DNA from: a virus | Length of the DNA stretch: 51,378 nt | Direction: 5' to 3' (one strand) | IMG/VR virus record: IMGVR_UViG_3300042463_001197 | Span: 1 to 51,378 of that record | Shown: positions 27,022 through 39,110 of the stretch, one piece after another | Numbering within the stretch: position 1 is the stretch's first letter | Layout of the letters: the number at the start of each line of letters is the position of its first letter | The notes under the pieces: model-generated | The model's input: only the letters and a program-made list of their open reading frames with translations | The model's database searches: none | What the model was told of the DNA's origin: nothing | Made by a program: the position numbers and the translations under genes

Positions 27022-27096
27022 CCACCTGTAGCTCAGAGGCAGAGCAATCGGTCGATAACCGATAGGTCGTGATATCGTAATTCACCAGGTGGACCA
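27022..27096 (+). tRNA. tRNA-Ile(GAT)
   Basis: Acceptor CCACCTG/CAGGTGG, anticodon arm ATCGG-TCGATAA-CCGAT, A73 CCA. The T-arm GTGAT-ATCGTAA-TTCAC has a T-T closing pair and A in place of T54. Confidence 0.88.
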
Positions 27097-28794: not shown

Positions 28795-29469
28795 ATGTTC
28801 TATACGGTTTACAAGATAACTAATTTAATCAACGAAAAGATTTACATTGGAGTTCATAAGACAGATGATCTCAATGATTCATACATGGGTTCTGGTCTCT
28901 TAATTAAGCATGCTATTTCAAAATATGGCATTCAAAATTTCGTAAAGGAATACATTGCAATTTTTAATAATCCTGAAGAAATGTTTAGTATGGAGTCCGA
29001 ACTCGTTAATGAGGAGCTGATAAAGTCTGGACATTCTTATAATCTAAAAGAAGGCGGATCTGGTGGTTGGGATTATGTAAACTCTTCAGAAAAAAACATT
29101 TATGGTCTAAATGGAAAGACGCCAGATGCCATTGCTAATTTAGCTAAAGGATTAGAAACTCAAAGATATCTTAGAAAGAACGATCCTGAGTGGGCTGCAC
29201 GTGTTCATGAAAACCAGTCTATTGCCGCAGTGAATAGAAATAAAAAGTATGGCAATGGTTTCAAAGGTAAGTCACACACAGAGCAAACAAAAGCTAAATT
29301 ACGAAAGCCACGTCCAGCATCCGCTGGAGATAAAAATTCTCAGTTTGGGACGATGTGGATAACTAATAAGATTTTGAACAAAAAGATTTTGAAAACCGAT
29401 CCAATCCCAGATGGTTGGATGAAAGGTATGACTCCGAAACAATTAGTGACGGAAAATAAATTTAGATGA
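28795..29469 (+). CDS. GIY-YIG homing endonuclease
   Basis: A 224-residue nuclease inside the tRNA array. Seen: YTVYKITNLINEKIYIGVHK, the GIY-YIG pair, then DSYMGSGLLIKHAISKYG and FVKEYIAIF and an acid in MESELVNEELI. C-terminal NUMOD-type motifs follow (GFKGKSHTEQTKAKL), and a module DKNSQFGTMWITNKIL, KTDPIPDGWMKGM that is also present in the HNH nucleases at 29932 and 34910, so DNA-binding modules have been shuffled between nuclease types. Its own late box drives it. It follows a tRNA-Asn gene that lacks its CCA end; the insertion target may be that tRNA. Confidence 0.88.
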   Translation: MFYTVYKITNLINEKIYIGVHKTDDLNDSYMGSGLLIKHAISKYGIQNFVKEYIAIFNNPEEMFSMESELVNEELIKSGHSYNLKEGGSGGWDYVNSSEKNIYGLNGKTPDAIANLAKGLETQRYLRKNDPEWAARVHENQSIAAVNRNKKYGNGFKGKSHTEQTKAKLRKPRPASAGDKNSQFGTMWITNKILNKKILKTDPIPDGWMKGMTPKQLVTENKFR

Positions 29470-29681: not shown

Positions 29682-29756
29682 TGCTCTGTAGCTCAAAGGA
29701 AGAGCGCTTGCCTGACGTGCAAGAGGTTTGGGTATCGTGATCCCACAGAGCAACCA
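29682..29756 (+). tRNA. tRNA-Val(GAC)
   Basis: Acceptor TGCTCTG/CAGAGCA, anticodon arm CTTGC-CTGACGT-GCAAG, T-arm TGGGT-ATCGTGA-TCCCA (T-T closing pair), A73 CCA. Confidence 0.88.
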
Positions 29757-29764
29757 TTTTTAAT

Positions 29765-29839
29765 GCCGGCATAGCTCAGAGGCAGAGCAGTTACCTTGTA
29801 AGTAACAGGTCGAGATTTCGAAATTCTCTGTCGGCTCCA
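29765..29839 (+). tRNA. tRNA-Thr(TGT) 1
   Basis: Acceptor GCCGGCA/TGTCGGC, T73, anticodon arm GTTAC-CTTGTAA-GTAAC, T-arm GAGAT-TTCGAAA-TTCTC (T-T closing pair), CCA. Confidence 0.9.
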
Positions 29840-29847
29840 CTTTCAAC

Positions 29848-29903
29848 GCTCCTTAAGCATAGATGGCGATGCGCTGATTTCGTACATCAGAAAGGACGGC
29901 TCG
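29848..29903 (+). pseudogene. Truncated tRNA-Thr(CGT), cut in the T-loop
   Basis: GCTCCTT acceptor strand, D-arm, anticodon arm CTGAT-TTCGTAC-ATCAG and the start of the T-arm (GACGG-CTCG) are present; then the sequence changes to TAAGCTCGATATTTG, the left end of the nuclease element. No acceptor 3' strand or CCA follows. Confidence 0.7.
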
Positions 29904-29918
29904 TAAGCTCGATATTTG

Positions 29919-29926
29919 TATAAATA
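29919..29926 (+). promoter_or_regulatory. Late promoter box of the HNH element
   Basis: TATAAATA five bases before the ATG at 29932. Confidence 0.6.
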
Positions 29927-29931
29927 CTTTC

Positions 29932-30555
29932 ATGGATTACAAACGCATCTATGATGAGCTTATAGCATTTAGAAAGGTTAACATTCCTTCAGGATATGTT
30001 GAGCGACATCATATAATCATGACCTCACTAGGAGGCAGTGATGATGCTGATAATTTAGTTAAGCTAACTGGCCGCGAGCATTGGATTGCTCATCTTTTAC
30101 TTCACCAGATCTATCAACGATCTGAAACCGCATATGCTTGTCATATGATGGCAATGCGATGTGAAGAGCGTGAAATACCATGTATCAAAAGTTCGCGGGT
30201 CTATGAAAAGATACGAAAGGAATGTGCTAAATTAACCTCAAAGACAATGAAATTTCATCAAGCTGGTGAAAGAAATTCGCAATTTGGAACCCGCTACATA
30301 TGTAATCTTGATCTTAAACAAAATAAAAAGATTAAGAAGACAGACAATATTCCTGAAGGATGGATTGCCGGTCGTAATAGATGGAATATTGAGTCCAAAG
30401 TATCTAAGCCTAAGTATGTACATACTGAAGAGCATAAACGTAACATATCTGTTTCTAATAAAGGGAAACCAAAAACGGAAGAATGGAGAACACAGATTTC
30501 AAACATTCAACGTGGTAAGATTCGAGGACCTTACAAAAAAGCTAACGTCGCATAG
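29932..30555 (+). CDS. HNH homing endonuclease in the tRNA-Thr locus
   Basis: A 207-residue nuclease. Seen: GYVERHHIIMTSLGGSDDAD, then NLVKLTGREHWIAHLLLHQI, an HNH core; a linker module ERNSQFGTRYICNLDLKQNK, IPEGWIAG; and a C-terminal NUMOD3-type stretch EEHKRNISVSNKGKPKTEEW. The N-terminal 150 residues are closely similar to the nuclease at 34910, so the two are paralogues that settled in different tRNA genes. The last 15 nt (KANVA and stop) are also the first 15 nt of an intact tRNA-Thr(CGT). The upstream neighbour is a tRNA-Thr(CGT) broken in its T-loop. Its likely target is therefore a Thr tRNA gene. Confidence 0.88.
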   Translation: MDYKRIYDELIAFRKVNIPSGYVERHHIIMTSLGGSDDADNLVKLTGREHWIAHLLLHQIYQRSETAYACHMMAMRCEEREIPCIKSSRVYEKIRKECAKLTSKTMKFHQAGERNSQFGTRYICNLDLKQNKKIKKTDNIPEGWIAGRNRWNIESKVSKPKYVHTEEHKRNISVSNKGKPKTEEWRTQISNIQRGKIRGPYKKANVA

Positions 30556-30619
30556 CTGGCCAATTGCACATGTTTCGTAATCATGTTTTTCGTGAGTTCA
30601 AATCTCACCGTTAGCTCCA
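30541..30619 (+). tRNA. tRNA-Thr(CGT), intact, overlapping nuclease gene
   Basis: Acceptor GCTAACG/CGTTAGC, T73, loop TTCGTAA in a stem CATGT/TCATG with one T-T pair, T-arm GTGAG-TTCAAAT-CTCAC, CCA. Its body differs from that of the broken Thr(CGT) copy upstream. Confidence 0.85.
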
Positions 30620-30626
30620 CTTTTAT

Positions 30627-30704
30627 CGGGTATTAGCGTAGCCTGGCTAGCGCGCCTCATTTGGATTGAGGAGGTCGTAGGTTCGAATCCTACATACCCG
30701 ACCA
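30627..30704 (+). tRNA. tRNA-Pro(TGG) 2
   Basis: Acceptor CGGGTAT/ATACCCG, anticodon arm CCTCA-TTTGGAT-TGAGG, T-arm GTAGG-TTCGAAT-CCTAC, A73 CCA. Confidence 0.92.
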
Positions 30705-30708
30705 CTTT

Positions 30709-30794
30709 ACAGTAAGTCGAAGGCGGATTACTCCACCCAGCCAATTTAGTTGGGACTGTATGAATACATTGAATAAACACTCCCTTCTTACTGT
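30709..30794 (+). ncRNA. tRNA-sized structured RNA without CCA
   Basis: 86 nt closed by ACAGTAAG/CTTACTGT with inner CCAA/TTGG and TGTAT/ATACA hairpins, sitting between two tRNAs with the usual short spacers. No cloverleaf could be built. Confidence 0.5.
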
Positions 30795-30799
30795 TTTAT

Positions 30800-31789: not shown

Positions 31790-32002
31790 ATGAAGCCAAT
31801 ACTTGCTACAAGTCAATTCTGCGGTCCTTGCAAACTGCTTAAAGACCGCCTTGATCCGAACTCTTATGAGGTTCGAGACATGGAAAAAGACCGTGATTTT
31901 TTCATCGAAAACGGCATCCGTGCTGTTCCTATGCTCATCATAGGAACCGTGAAAATCACAGGAATGGACAAAATCATCGCATATTTCGACGAAAACCCAT
32001 AA
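31790..32002 (+). CDS. Small thioredoxin/glutaredoxin-like protein
   Basis: A 70-residue protein with the redox motif CGPC in ATSQFCGPCKLLKDRL, then NGIRAVPMLIIGTVKITGMD, which contains the cis-Pro (VP) and the Gly pair of the glutaredoxin fold. It is shorter than host glutaredoxins (about 85) but like phage NrdH/NrdC forms. Known: these proteins reduce the C-terminal Cys pair of NrdA, which here is CSTC. It is the only recognisable enzyme gene inside the RNA island and lies between a tRNA and the promoter of the second tRNA operon. Confidence 0.82.
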   Translation: MKPILATSQFCGPCKLLKDRLDPNSYEVRDMEKDRDFFIENGIRAVPMLIIGTVKITGMDKIIAYFDENP

Positions 32003-34637: not shown

Positions 34638-34728
34638 GGAGGTATGACAGAGCGGTAACTGTGTCTGTTTGCTAAACAGAAGCCACCCTTGATCGGGTGC
34701 GTCGGTTCGATCCCGGCTACCTCCGCCA
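34638..34728 (+). tRNA. tRNA-Ser(GCT)
   Basis: Acceptor GGAGGTA/TACCTCC, G73, anticodon arm TCTGT-TTGCTAA-ACAGA, long variable arm, T-loop TTCGATC, CCA. Confidence 0.93.
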
Positions 34729-34736
34729 ATTTCAAT

Positions 34737-34813
34737 CGCGGGTTCGACAGGAGGTGGTTCCTGCCGGGTTTCATAAGCCTAGTACGTCGGTTCGAGTCCG
34801 ACACCCGCAACCA
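34737..34813 (+). tRNA. Initiator-type tRNA-Met(CAT) 2
   Basis: Acceptor CGCGGGT/ACCCGCA with C1-A72 mismatch, loop TTCATAA, T-arm GTCGG-TTCGAGT-CCGAC, A73 CCA. The anticodon stem CGGGT/GCCTA is imperfect but has two G-C pairs next to the loop side. Confidence 0.8.
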
Positions 34814-34825
34814 ATTTTCTAACAT

Positions 34826-34881
34826 GGCCCGTTCGTTTAATGGATAGGACTGCTCCCTTCTAAGGAGACAATAGAGGTTCG
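34826..34881 (+). pseudogene. Truncated tRNA-Arg(TCT), cut in the T-loop
   Basis: GGCCCGT acceptor strand, D-arm GTTTAATGGATAGGAC, anticodon arm TCCC-TTCTAA-GGAG region and GAGG-TTCG are intact; the sequence then changes to TAAGTTCGGTATTTG, the left end of the nuclease element. Confidence 0.7.
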
Positions 34882-34896
34882 TAAGTTCGGTATTTG

Positions 34897-34904
34897 TATA
34901 AATA
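34897..34904 (+). promoter_or_regulatory. Late promoter box of the HNH element
   Basis: TATAAATA five bases before the ATG at 34910. Confidence 0.6.
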
Positions 34905-34909
34905 CTTTC

Positions 34910-35593
34910 ATGGATTACAAACGTATCTATGATGAACTTATTGCTTTTAGACAAGCTAACATTCCGTCCGGTTATGTTGAGCGTCATCATATTATCATGC
35001 GTTCTCTCGGTGGTTTGGATGATTCTATAAATCTTGTCGCATTAACTGGACGAGAGCATTGGATTGCTCATTTACTTCTTCATAAGATATATCGACGTTC
35101 TGAAACTGCTCATGCATGTAATATGATGGCAATGCGGTGTGAAGAACGCGGCATTGGATACATTAAGAATTCTAGAATGTATGAAAAGATTCGTAAGGAA
35201 TGTGCGAAGCTAACTTCGATTAGAAATTCAGCTTCTCAATCTGGAGAACGCAATTCCCAACACGGTACACGTTGGATATGCAATATTGACCTTAAAGAAA
35301 ACAAGAAGATTCTAAAGACTGATGCGATACCCGAAGGATGGATTGCTGGACGCGATCATTGGAATCGTTTTATTGAAAAACAATGTTTGAAGTGTAAAAC
35401 GATTTTCTTTGGTAAGCGCCTTGTCAAATATTGTTCTTCGGCATGCAGATCTCGTAAGTTAACGGACGAAGAAAAACATCATTTATCCAGGCAAGCTTTG
35501 CTATCAGGAAGAAATTCCGGTAAAAACAATGGCATGCATAAATCAAAACTTTCTCGATTGGCCTCGGTATCGGAACGTGCTTCTAACGCGTAG
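34910..35593 (+). CDS. HNH homing endonuclease in the tRNA-Arg locus
   Basis: A 227-residue nuclease whose N-terminal 150 residues closely follow the one at 29932: GYVERHHIIMRSLGGLDDSI, NLVALTGREHWIAHLLLHKI and ERNSQHGTRWICNIDLKENK. Its C-terminus is different: a zinc-finger-like CLKCKTIFFGKRLVKYC, SSACRSRK and a basic tail. Different DNA-binding tails on a common HNH body fit two different tRNA targets (Thr and Arg). The last 33 nt are shared with the following tRNA-Arg(TCT). Confidence 0.88.
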   Translation: MDYKRIYDELIAFRQANIPSGYVERHHIIMRSLGGLDDSINLVALTGREHWIAHLLLHKIYRRSETAHACNMMAMRCEERGIGYIKNSRMYEKIRKECAKLTSIRNSASQSGERNSQHGTRWICNIDLKENKKILKTDAIPEGWIAGRDHWNRFIEKQCLKCKTIFFGKRLVKYCSSACRSRKLTDEEKHHLSRQALLSGRNSGKNNGMHKSKLSRLASVSERASNA

Positions 35594-35638
35594 AACCGTA
35601 ATGGAACGATGTAGGTTCGATTCCTACTCGAGGCGCCA
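35561..35638 (+). tRNA. tRNA-Arg(TCT) 1, intact, overlapping nuclease gene
   Basis: Acceptor GCCTCGG/TCGAGGC, G73, anticodon arm ACGTG-CTTCTAA-CGCGT, T-arm GTAGG-TTCGATT-CCTAC, CCA. Its body differs from the broken Arg(TCT) copy at 34826. Confidence 0.88.
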
Positions 35639-35678
35639 CTTTCTGTAATAAGAGACCTGATCAGAACTAATTTTCAAT

Positions 35679-35756
35679 GGCCGTGTAGCCCAATCGGCAG
35701 TAGGCAACAGACTTAAAATCTGTAAAGTGTGGGTTCGAGTCCCACCACGGCTACCA
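35679..35756 (+). tRNA. tRNA-Leu(TAA) with a short variable loop
   Basis: Acceptor GGCCGTG/CACGGCT, anticodon arm ACAGA-CTTAAAA-TCTGT, T-arm GTGGG-TTCGAGT-CCCAC, A73 CCA. Variable loop is AAAGT only. Confidence 0.87.
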
Positions 35757-35763
35757 ATTTAAT

Positions 35764-35839
35764 TGGGGTGAGGCTTAATGGTATCAGCTCCCGACTCATA
35801 ATCGGTGGATAGCGGGTTCGATTCCCGTCGCCCCTACCA
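35764..35839 (+). tRNA. tRNA with CAT anticodon (Met or Ile2)
   Basis: Acceptor TGGGGTG/CGCCCCT with T1-T72, anticodon arm CCGA-CTCATAA-TCGG, T-arm GCGGG-TTCGATT-CCCGT, A73 CCA. Confidence 0.85.
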
Positions 35840-36605: not shown

Positions 36606-36680
36606 GCTTGTGTAGCTCAACGGTAGAGCACGGAATTCTAACCTCCTGTGGTATGGGTTCAAATCCCATCATAAGCACCA
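36606..36680 (+). tRNA. tRNA-Arg(TCT) 2
   Basis: Acceptor GCTTGTG/CATAAGC, loop TTCTAAC in a bulged stem CGGA/TCC-T-G, T-arm ATGGG-TTCAAAT-CCCAT, A73 CCA. Confidence 0.75.
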
Positions 36681-38762: not shown

Positions 38763-39099
38763 GGGGATGTTTTGGTTTCGACATAATCGGAGAAACAGCA
38801 TCTGCAATCAAAGGTCTGCACGACCTCTTAAGTGCAAAACAACAAAAGGCGAAAATACCTTAGCTCTCGCTGCTTAAGCCGCGATCGTTTGTCAATGACT
38901 CCTCTATTTGATAAGCGAACGACAGAGGATATCATGCATAGAGAAATTATGCTACGAAGTGTATAAGAGATGATACACTCGGGCGCTGTTCCGTTATGCA
39001 GATAGTCAGTAAGATGACAATAAACTCTTAATATGATTGTAGGACAGATGCTGATGCACTGGTTGTGGACGCTGGGTTCAACTCCCGCCATCTCCACCA
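38763..39099 (+). ncRNA. ssrA: Phage-encoded tmRNA (SsrA)
   Basis: A 337-nt gene of tmRNA length. The 5' end GGGGATG pairs with CATCTCC, followed by A73 and CCA; the 3' end GGGTTCAACTCCCGCC is nearly the bacterial tmRNA T-arm, and the 5' part TTTTGGTTTCGAC matches the tmRNA D-loop region. A tag reading frame ends ...GGC GAA AAT ACC TTA GCT CTC GCT GCT TAA (38848-38877), that is GENTLALAA, with the ALAA degron of bacterial tags; the resume codon is uncertain (TGC 38833, AAA 38836). Known: with SmpB it frees stalled ribosomes and tags proteins for ClpXP. There is no smpB in the window. Confidence 0.93.
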
Positions 39100-39110
39100 A
39101 TTTCTATAAT

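What the first reader, a model, noticed from the sequence alone, without database searches (positions are those of the whole stretch)
34826..35638. Same element plan repeated at a tRNA-Arg(TCT) gene
The left ends at 29904 and 34882 are both 28 nt long, differ at two bases and start at the same place in the T-loop (after TCG). The nuclease bodies are paralogous but the C-terminal DNA-binding parts differ, and here the carried tRNA is Arg(TCT), matching the broken Arg(TCT). Two independent cases with matched anticodons make chance unlikely. This could be an undescribed class of self-compensating homing element.
Basis: partly seen in the sequence, partly recalled or inferred. Interest (0 to 1): 0.9.

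Follow-up and report, generated by a model that had tools for sequence, protein, structure and literature searches.

The report
Phage homing elements carrying replacement tRNAs
In many phages a DNA-cutting gene has inserted itself into a transfer-RNA gene and brought along a different, intact tRNA gene that reads the same codon, so the host phage loses a tRNA and gets an equivalent one back, much like an engineered 'home-and-rescue' gene drive.

Summary
At 34826-35638 the 5' part of a tRNA-Arg(TCT) ends in the T-loop, followed by a T4-type late promoter, an HNH nuclease gene, and an intact, different tRNA-Arg(TCT) into which the gene's 3' end runs. tRNA-Thr(CGT) at 29848-30619 has the same plan. 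Profile searches found dozens of relatives. Read by eye, 31 of 35 readable cases have the same anticodon in the broken and carried tRNA (20 anticodons). A blind caller gave 19 of 31 (shuffles average 1.2, maximum 8 of 50,000). Ordinary neighbouring tRNAs share an anticodon in 2%. An unrelated nuclease family does the same at tRNA-Glu(TTC), and some copies keep both halves of the broken tRNA around [nuclease + intact tRNA]. Cultured Vibrio phages show three alleles at one locus: intact tRNA A (pv27), A-fragment/HNH/tRNA B (SRILMA), B alone (phiKT1024). The HNH C-terminus tracks the target tRNA; the catalytic part does not. Best explanation: a homing endonuclease that cuts a tRNA gene and carries a divergent, presumably uncuttable isoacceptor that restores function. 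Insertion and replacement are shown by sequence; cutting, drive and rescue are inferred.

The parts
34826..34881 (+). 5' fragment of the resident tRNA-Arg(TCT), 'A', cut in the T-loop after TTCG; 3' part lost
   Evidence: Orthologous intact tRNA-Arg(TCT) at the same place in L022 7172-7247 (44/55 identical) and L013 2168-2242; not recognised as tRNA by Rfam
34882..34909 (+). Leader of the element with T4-type late promoter TATAAATA (34897-34904), five bases before the ATG
   Evidence: same promoter motif in most related elements
34910..35593 (+). HNH homing endonuclease gene (227 aa); stop codon lies inside the carried tRNA
   Evidence: phrog_655 E=9e-34; invariant H26 H27 N41 H50; AlphaFold pLDDT 95-97 over residues 1-60; pN far below pS against its paralogue
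35561..35638 (+). Carried intact tRNA-Arg(TCT), 'B', divergent from A; lacks a clear D-arm
   Evidence: Rfam tRNA 34.3 bits; ARAGORN with relaxed threshold Arg(tct)
29848..29903 (+). 5' fragment of the resident tRNA-Thr(CGT), cut in the T-loop
   Evidence: 55/55 identical to the intact tRNA-Thr(CGT) of L022 starting at 1817, up to window base 29902
29904..29931 (+). Leader of the second element with TATAAATA (29919-29926)
29932..30555 (+). Paralogous HNH homing endonuclease gene (207 aa) with a different C-terminal part; stop inside the carried tRNA
   Evidence: phrog_655 E=8e-39
30541..30619 (+). Carried intact tRNA-Thr(CGT)
   Evidence: ARAGORN; Rfam 48.8 bits

Best explanation
[quoted passage not shown] The nuclease, through its exchangeable C-terminal part, recognises one tRNA gene (A) and cuts it in the T-loop or anticodon region. 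Repair of the break from an element-bearing phage inserts nuclease plus tRNA B, usually destroying A and leaving its 5' piece as a scar. B has the same anticodon but a divergent sequence, so it replaces A's function and should not be cut. Later the nuclease decays or is deleted and B remains as the resident tRNA. Shown by sequence: insertion into A, loss of A, the physical nuclease-B unit, anticodon match across about 20 anticodons, the three allelic states, and C-terminus/target association. Inferred: cutting, homing in mixed infection, immunity of B, and functional rescue.
For: Anticodon match: 19 of 31 by a blind caller against a shuffle mean of 1.2; second set 3 of 9, p=0.004; 31 of 35 readable cases by eye, 20 anticodons. 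Null for arrays: adjacent intact tRNA pairs share an anticodon in 10 of 467. Empty sites: intact Thr(CGT) and Arg(TCT) in L022/L013. Three alleles at one Vibrio locus with near-identical flanks: pv27 A, SRILMA A5'-HNH-B, phiKT1024/phiTY18 B. Agrobacterium phages: OLIVR5/IG49 intact Asn(GTT); IC12/LG08 anticodon-loop fragment + HNH + another Asn(GTT). Both halves of A around nuclease+B in L109, L110, L113, L146 and in L042/L043, read by eye. Unrelated nuclease family at tRNA-Glu(TTC). C-terminal similarity follows the target (0 of 5000 shuffles reach it) while the N-terminal does not (p=0.37). Decay stage: HNH tail fused to Thr(TGT) in L022. 25 of 34 nuclease stop codons lie inside the carried tRNA.
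Against: No cleavage, inheritance or tRNA-function data. The window's own B (Arg) lacks a recognisable D-arm and may work poorly. Exceptions: L033 (broken piece reads Phe, carried Gly), L064 and L152 (Asn fragment, Thr downstream), L070 (Tyr fragment, Asp downstream), L101 (no broken piece). In L136, L064, L070 and Synechococcus phage S-CBWM1 an intact isoacceptor lies upstream instead. The B-alone allele could also arise without this element.
Confidence: 0.75

Rival explanations
1. Classical intronless homing with marker exclusion: the nuclease simply sits beside the donor's own allele of the target tRNA, cuts the recipient's allele, and co-conversion brings nuclease plus donor allele; the 5' piece is a recombination scar. 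The match exists because A and B are alleles, not because B evolved as cargo.
For: T4 Seg/Mob enzymes cut a neighbouring gene in recipients and co-convert flanks (PMC2988022). In Vibrio phages A and B occupy the same locus. The carried tRNA lies downstream of the nuclease as a neighbour would.
Against: A and B are very different tRNAs (52 of 81, 52 of 83 and 49 of 79 alignment columns identical). In L109, L110, L113, L146 both halves of A flank nuclease+B, so the pair inserted as a cassette; L042/L043 look the same by eye. Nuclease reading frames run into B in 25 of 34. Paralogous nucleases with swapped C-termini sit in different tRNAs, each with its own matched B.
Confidence: 0.2
2. An ordinary homing endonuclease landed in tandem isoacceptor tRNAs that were already side by side; the match is pre-existing duplication.
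For: tRNA arrays do contain repeated isoacceptors (10 of 467 adjacent pairs).
Against: That is only 2.1% of adjacent intact pairs. Empty sites hold one tRNA, not two (L022 Thr, pv27 Thr, OLIVR5 Asn).
Confidence: 0.03
3. The interruption is removed at RNA level (group I intron or trans-splicing) so the broken tRNA is functional.
For: Homing endonucleases often sit in introns, and group I introns occur in tRNA genes (general knowledge; PMC3984707 abstract).
Against: No intron family match in 34700-35800 or 29700-30720. In the window A's 3' part is missing, so splicing could not restore it; the downstream tRNA is complete with its own acceptor pairing.
Confidence: 0.02

Closest known systems
Free-standing T4-type homing endonucleases, especially SegB in tRNA regions (PMC2988022; PMC13096335; Brok-Volchanskaya 2008)
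   Same: Nuclease gene outside introns, phage tRNA regions, late promoters, spread of nuclease with flanking tRNAs.
   Different: T4 SegB is listed as lying between tRNA-Arg and tRNA-Ile with its target in a tRNA intergenic region, and the 2026 paper concerns amplification of tRNA segments; a text search of it found no 'truncated tRNA' or 'isoacceptor'. Here the gene lies inside a tRNA and carries a matched isoacceptor.
Fungal mitochondrial mobile ORFs that carry a replacement gene end (Allomyces atp6; Glomus atp6/atp9/cox2/nad3; PMC3630166)
   Same: A homing endonuclease inserts into a gene and supplies a divergent replacement for what it disrupts.
   Different: There a 3' coding part is supplied and a hybrid reading frame results; here a whole independent tRNA gene is supplied. 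Phage, HNH or PD-(D/E)XK-like, many targets.
Synthetic home-and-rescue / cleave-and-rescue gene drives (PMC7968924)
   Same: Logic: nuclease targets a needed gene and carries a cut-resistant rescue copy.
   Different: Engineered CRISPR systems in insects; here natural and protein-guided.
tRNA-targeting integrative elements (phage and island integrases)
   Same: Use tRNA genes as target and keep the tRNA function (general knowledge).
   Different: No integrase here; the tRNA is not restored by an identical repeat but replaced by a different tRNA.

Membership tests
Free-standing homing endonuclease | Known nuclease fold/motif | tested here: met
   phrog_655 homing endonuclease E 9e-34 and 8e-39; invariant HH-N-H residues. 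Structure search gave no significant match.
Free-standing homing endonuclease | Present/absent polymorphism at otherwise syntenic loci | tested here: met
   pv27, phiKT1024, OLIVR5, IG49, L022 lack it with conserved flanks
Free-standing homing endonuclease | Not embedded in intron or intein | tested here: met
   No intron family match
Free-standing homing endonuclease | Cuts cognate site lacking the gene and is inherited preferentially | not testable with these tools
   Needs biochemistry and phage crosses
Free-standing homing endonuclease (usual T4 Seg/Mob pattern) | Inserted between genes without destroying them | tested here: not met
   Insertion destroys a tRNA gene, which a carried tRNA replaces
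Group I intron-encoded endonuclease in tRNA | Self-splicing intron around the gene | tested here: not met
   No Rfam intron hit; A 3' part absent in the window
Fungal mitochondrial mORF with replacement gene end | Nuclease insertion plus divergent duplicate of what it disrupts | tested here: met
   Met in kind, with a whole tRNA instead of a gene part:
Fungal mitochondrial mORF with replacement gene end | Hybrid gene formed in frame with native 5' part | tested here: not met
   B is complete with its own acceptor pairing
Home-and-rescue drive (as a mode of action) | Rescue copy differs from target | tested here: met
   A versus B about 62-70% of alignment columns identical for full-length pairs, up to 78% for one Asn pair
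Home-and-rescue drive (as a mode of action) | Rescue copy resists cleavage and inheritance is biased | not testable with these tools
   Cleavage assay and crosses needed
tRNA-integrating element with integrase | Site-specific recombinase and restoring repeat | tested here: not met
   Only an HNH gene lies between the two tRNAs; no restored copy of A's 3' end

The most novel reading that the evidence does not exclude
A widespread natural class of home-and-rescue gene drives in phages: at least two unrelated nuclease families evolved to destroy tRNA genes while carrying a recoded isoacceptor, and so drive continual replacement of tRNA genes in phage tRNA arrays.
Probability: 0.65. Interest if true: 0.88.

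Novelty: new variant of a known kind. Interest (0 to 1): 0.82.

Why it matters
Why large phages carry many tRNAs, and why these turn over, is an open question usually answered by codon usage or host tRNA-cutting defences. This gives a third, selfish answer: some tRNA genes in arrays may be there because a homing nuclease destroyed the previous one and brought its own. It is also a natural counterpart of engineered home-and-rescue drives, with cultured Vibrio and Agrobacterium phages already showing with- and without-element alleles, so it can be tested directly. The swap of the C-terminal part with the target gives a natural series of nucleases against many tRNA genes.

Tried and rejected
Chance: rejected by shuffles and by the 2% background. 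Counting the IMG/VR copies of the same phage as independent: rejected; L001, L002, L003 have the window's elements. Assembly artefact: rejected, same plan in separate contigs and cultured isolates. Intron: no hit. GIY-YIG gene at 28795-29469 as a third case: rejected, it follows an intact tRNA-Asn and does not run into a tRNA. Aeromonas phiA8-29 HNH: lies between intact tRNAs without overlap, not counted. RB32 relative: ordinary intergenic insertion beside gene 2. Structure search gave no significant match, best EcoKMcrA HNH at E=0.43. A strict shared 7-base loop test was weaker but still above chance, 14 against 2.3 expected. Scan with a third nuclease (Ile element of L025) found only itself. 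Scan of bacterial genomes gave six loci, one (L229) with the same plan at Asn(GTT). Literature search found no description of the class; bioRxiv and most subscription journals are not in the library.

Full report
WHAT IS THERE. The window is a phage contig (a virus record of 51,378 bases) with a dense tRNA array. At 34826-34881 lies the 5' part of a tRNA-Arg with anticodon TCT: acceptor strand, D-arm, anticodon arm and the 5' T-stem, ending in the T-loop at TTCG. There follow 28 bases with the T4-type late promoter TATAAATA, an ATG, a 227-residue HNH nuclease gene (34910-35593), and a complete tRNA-Arg(TCT) at 35561-35638 whose first 33 bases are also the nuclease's last codons. The same plan stands at 29848-30619 with tRNA-Thr(CGT). 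The two left ends differ at two of 28 bases. Both nucleases match phrog_655, homing endonuclease, and share invariant HH...N...H residues with their relatives. Between the two, synonymous change far exceeds amino-acid change (pS 0.72, pN 0.11), so they have been under selection as proteins. Rfam recognises the carried tRNAs (34.3 and 48.8 bits) and neither broken piece.

EMPTY SITES. A related contig (L022, IMG/VR 3300012348_000136) carries the intact tRNA-Thr(CGT): the window fragment is identical to it for 55 of 55 bases up to the cut in the T-loop. The same contig and L013 carry intact tRNA-Arg(TCT) where the window has the second element. At the Arg site sequence like L022's resumes just after the CCA end of the carried tRNA. 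So the element replaced the 3' end of A.

HOW GENERAL. A profile of the nuclease brought 80 loci from viral contigs; 36 of 81 with a full reading frame (counting named isolates) had a tRNA at or near the nuclease's 3' end. Upstream of the start codon of most of these lies a truncated tRNA, cut either in the T-loop or at the anticodon loop. By eye, over this and a second scan, 31 of 35 readable cases have the same anticodon in the broken and carried tRNA, over 20 anticodons including an amber-reading CTA.

STATISTICS. To avoid bias I trained a simple anticodon-arm scorer on 439 ordinary tRNAs and applied it separately to upstream and downstream stretches: 19 of 31 non-redundant loci gave the same anticodon, shuffles 1.2 on average, at most 8 in 50,000. 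Loci new in the second scan gave 3 of 9, p=0.004, with six by eye. Adjacent intact tRNA pairs in the same loci share an anticodon in only 10 of 467.

A SECOND NUCLEASE FAMILY. In the related contig L025 a nuclease of another kind (PD-(D/E)XK-like, my reading of its motifs; no Pfam match) sits in a broken tRNA-Glu and runs into an intact tRNA-Glu(TTC). Its relatives (41 loci) show a Glu-type 5' piece and a carried Glu(TTC) in most cases. In L109, L110, L113 and L146 the 3' half of the broken tRNA is kept after the carried tRNA and its acceptor strand pairs with that of the 5' half. The HNH loci L042/L043 (Pro TGG) look the same by eye. These cases fix the content of the element: nuclease plus one complete tRNA.

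THREE ALLELES IN CULTURED PHAGES. At one locus with near-identical flanks (305 of 313 and 94 of 100 columns for SRILMA against pv27), Vibrio phage pv27 has intact tRNA-Thr(TGT) A; SRILMA and TDDLMA have A cut right after the anticodon loop, HNH, and a different tRNA-Thr(TGT) B; phiKT1024 and phiTY18 have B alone, and Va1 has B alone with a changed right flank. Agrobacterium phages OLIVR5 and IG49 have intact tRNA-Asn(GTT); IC12 and LG08 have there an anticodon-loop fragment, HNH and another tRNA-Asn(GTT). In L022 a decayed HNH tail is still fused to tRNA-Thr(TGT). This gives the series A, then A-fragment/nuclease/B, then B. A fragment of A can only come from an A-bearing ancestor, so the first step is certain; the second is supported by the decay case but could have other routes.

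TARGET CHOICE. Over 35 nucleases, C-terminal similarity is higher between those in the same tRNA (0.205 against 0.089 expected; 0 of 5000 shuffles) while similarity of the first 110 residues is not (p=0.37). The window pair shows it directly: 0.79 in the catalytic part, 0.08 in the C-terminal part. I infer that the C-terminal part recognises the tRNA gene and is swapped when the element changes target. L033, whose broken piece reads Phe but whose C-terminal part is like that of the Gly(TCC) elements and whose cargo is Gly(TCC), fits this.

MECHANISM. Most likely the nuclease cuts A, repair copies nuclease plus B from an element-bearing genome, and B restores decoding while escaping cleavage because its sequence differs (52 of 81, 52 of 83 and 49 of 79 columns identical to A in the Vibrio, Thr and Arg pairs). 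Cutting, biased inheritance, immunity and rescue are inference. The main rival is plain intronless homing in which B is just the donor's allele; the cassette insertions, the strong divergence of A and B and the fusion of nuclease to B speak against it as the whole story. A weak point is that the window's own Arg B lacks a clear D-arm.

REGULATION. Elements cut at the anticodon loop usually have the reverse complement of that loop piece ending 1-5 bases before the ATG, with a TAAATA promoter-like motif between the two in most. In read-through RNA this would hide the start codon, while RNA started at the late promoter would not. This is inference.

COMPARISON. Free-standing endonucleases near phage tRNAs are known (SegB; PMC2988022, PMC13096335). 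Fungal mitochondrial endonucleases carrying a replacement gene end are the nearest analogue (PMC3630166). Engineered home-and-rescue drives have the same logic (PMC7968924). No paper found describes nuclease-tRNA cassettes inside tRNA genes with matched anticodons, but the library is incomplete.

Noticed in passing
L047, L048, L051, L060, L064, L070, L153, L174, L219, L229, L007, L235, L042, L045: leaders before the ATG: Inverted repeat: one arm is the anticodon-loop piece of the broken tRNA, the other its reverse complement ending 1-5 bases before the start codon, with a TAAATA-type late promoter between them in most. Possible start-codon-hiding hairpin or operator.
   Followed up: partly
window 35561-35638: The carried tRNA-Arg(TCT) has no recognisable D-arm and a long variable region, perhaps a cost of sharing bases with the nuclease gene.
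   Followed up: partly
window 30627-30799: After the carried tRNA-Thr the window has an extra tRNA-Pro(TGG) and spacer that L022 lacks between Thr and Ser(GGA); it may have come with the element.
   Followed up: no
L136, L064, L152, L070 and Synechococcus phage S-CBWM1 (L236): Nuclease and loop fragment present, but an intact isoacceptor (or, in L152, its 3' half) lies upstream instead of downstream. A different arrangement of the same element or a later rearrangement.
   Followed up: partly
window 36606-36680; L045 1461-1534: tRNA with anticodon CTA (ARAGORN 'Pyl'), probably an amber suppressor; in L045 such a tRNA is itself the target and the cargo.
   Followed up: no
window 38763-39100: Sequence much like the tmRNA gene that ARAGORN calls in the related contig L012 (2568-2903), not called in the window.
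   Followed up: no
window 28795-29469: GIY-YIG homing endonuclease gene (phrog_314) directly after an intact tRNA-Asn, with TATAAATA before its start; a different, ordinary insertion.
   Followed up: partly
L025 3050-3694: A third nuclease type, found in one contig only, sits in a broken tRNA-Ile(GAT) and runs into another tRNA-Ile(GAT); the target identity rests on orthology with window 27022-27096.
   Followed up: yes
window 31790-32002: Small thioredoxin- or glutaredoxin-like reading frame (CGPC motif) inside the tRNA array; no Pfam match.
   Followed up: no
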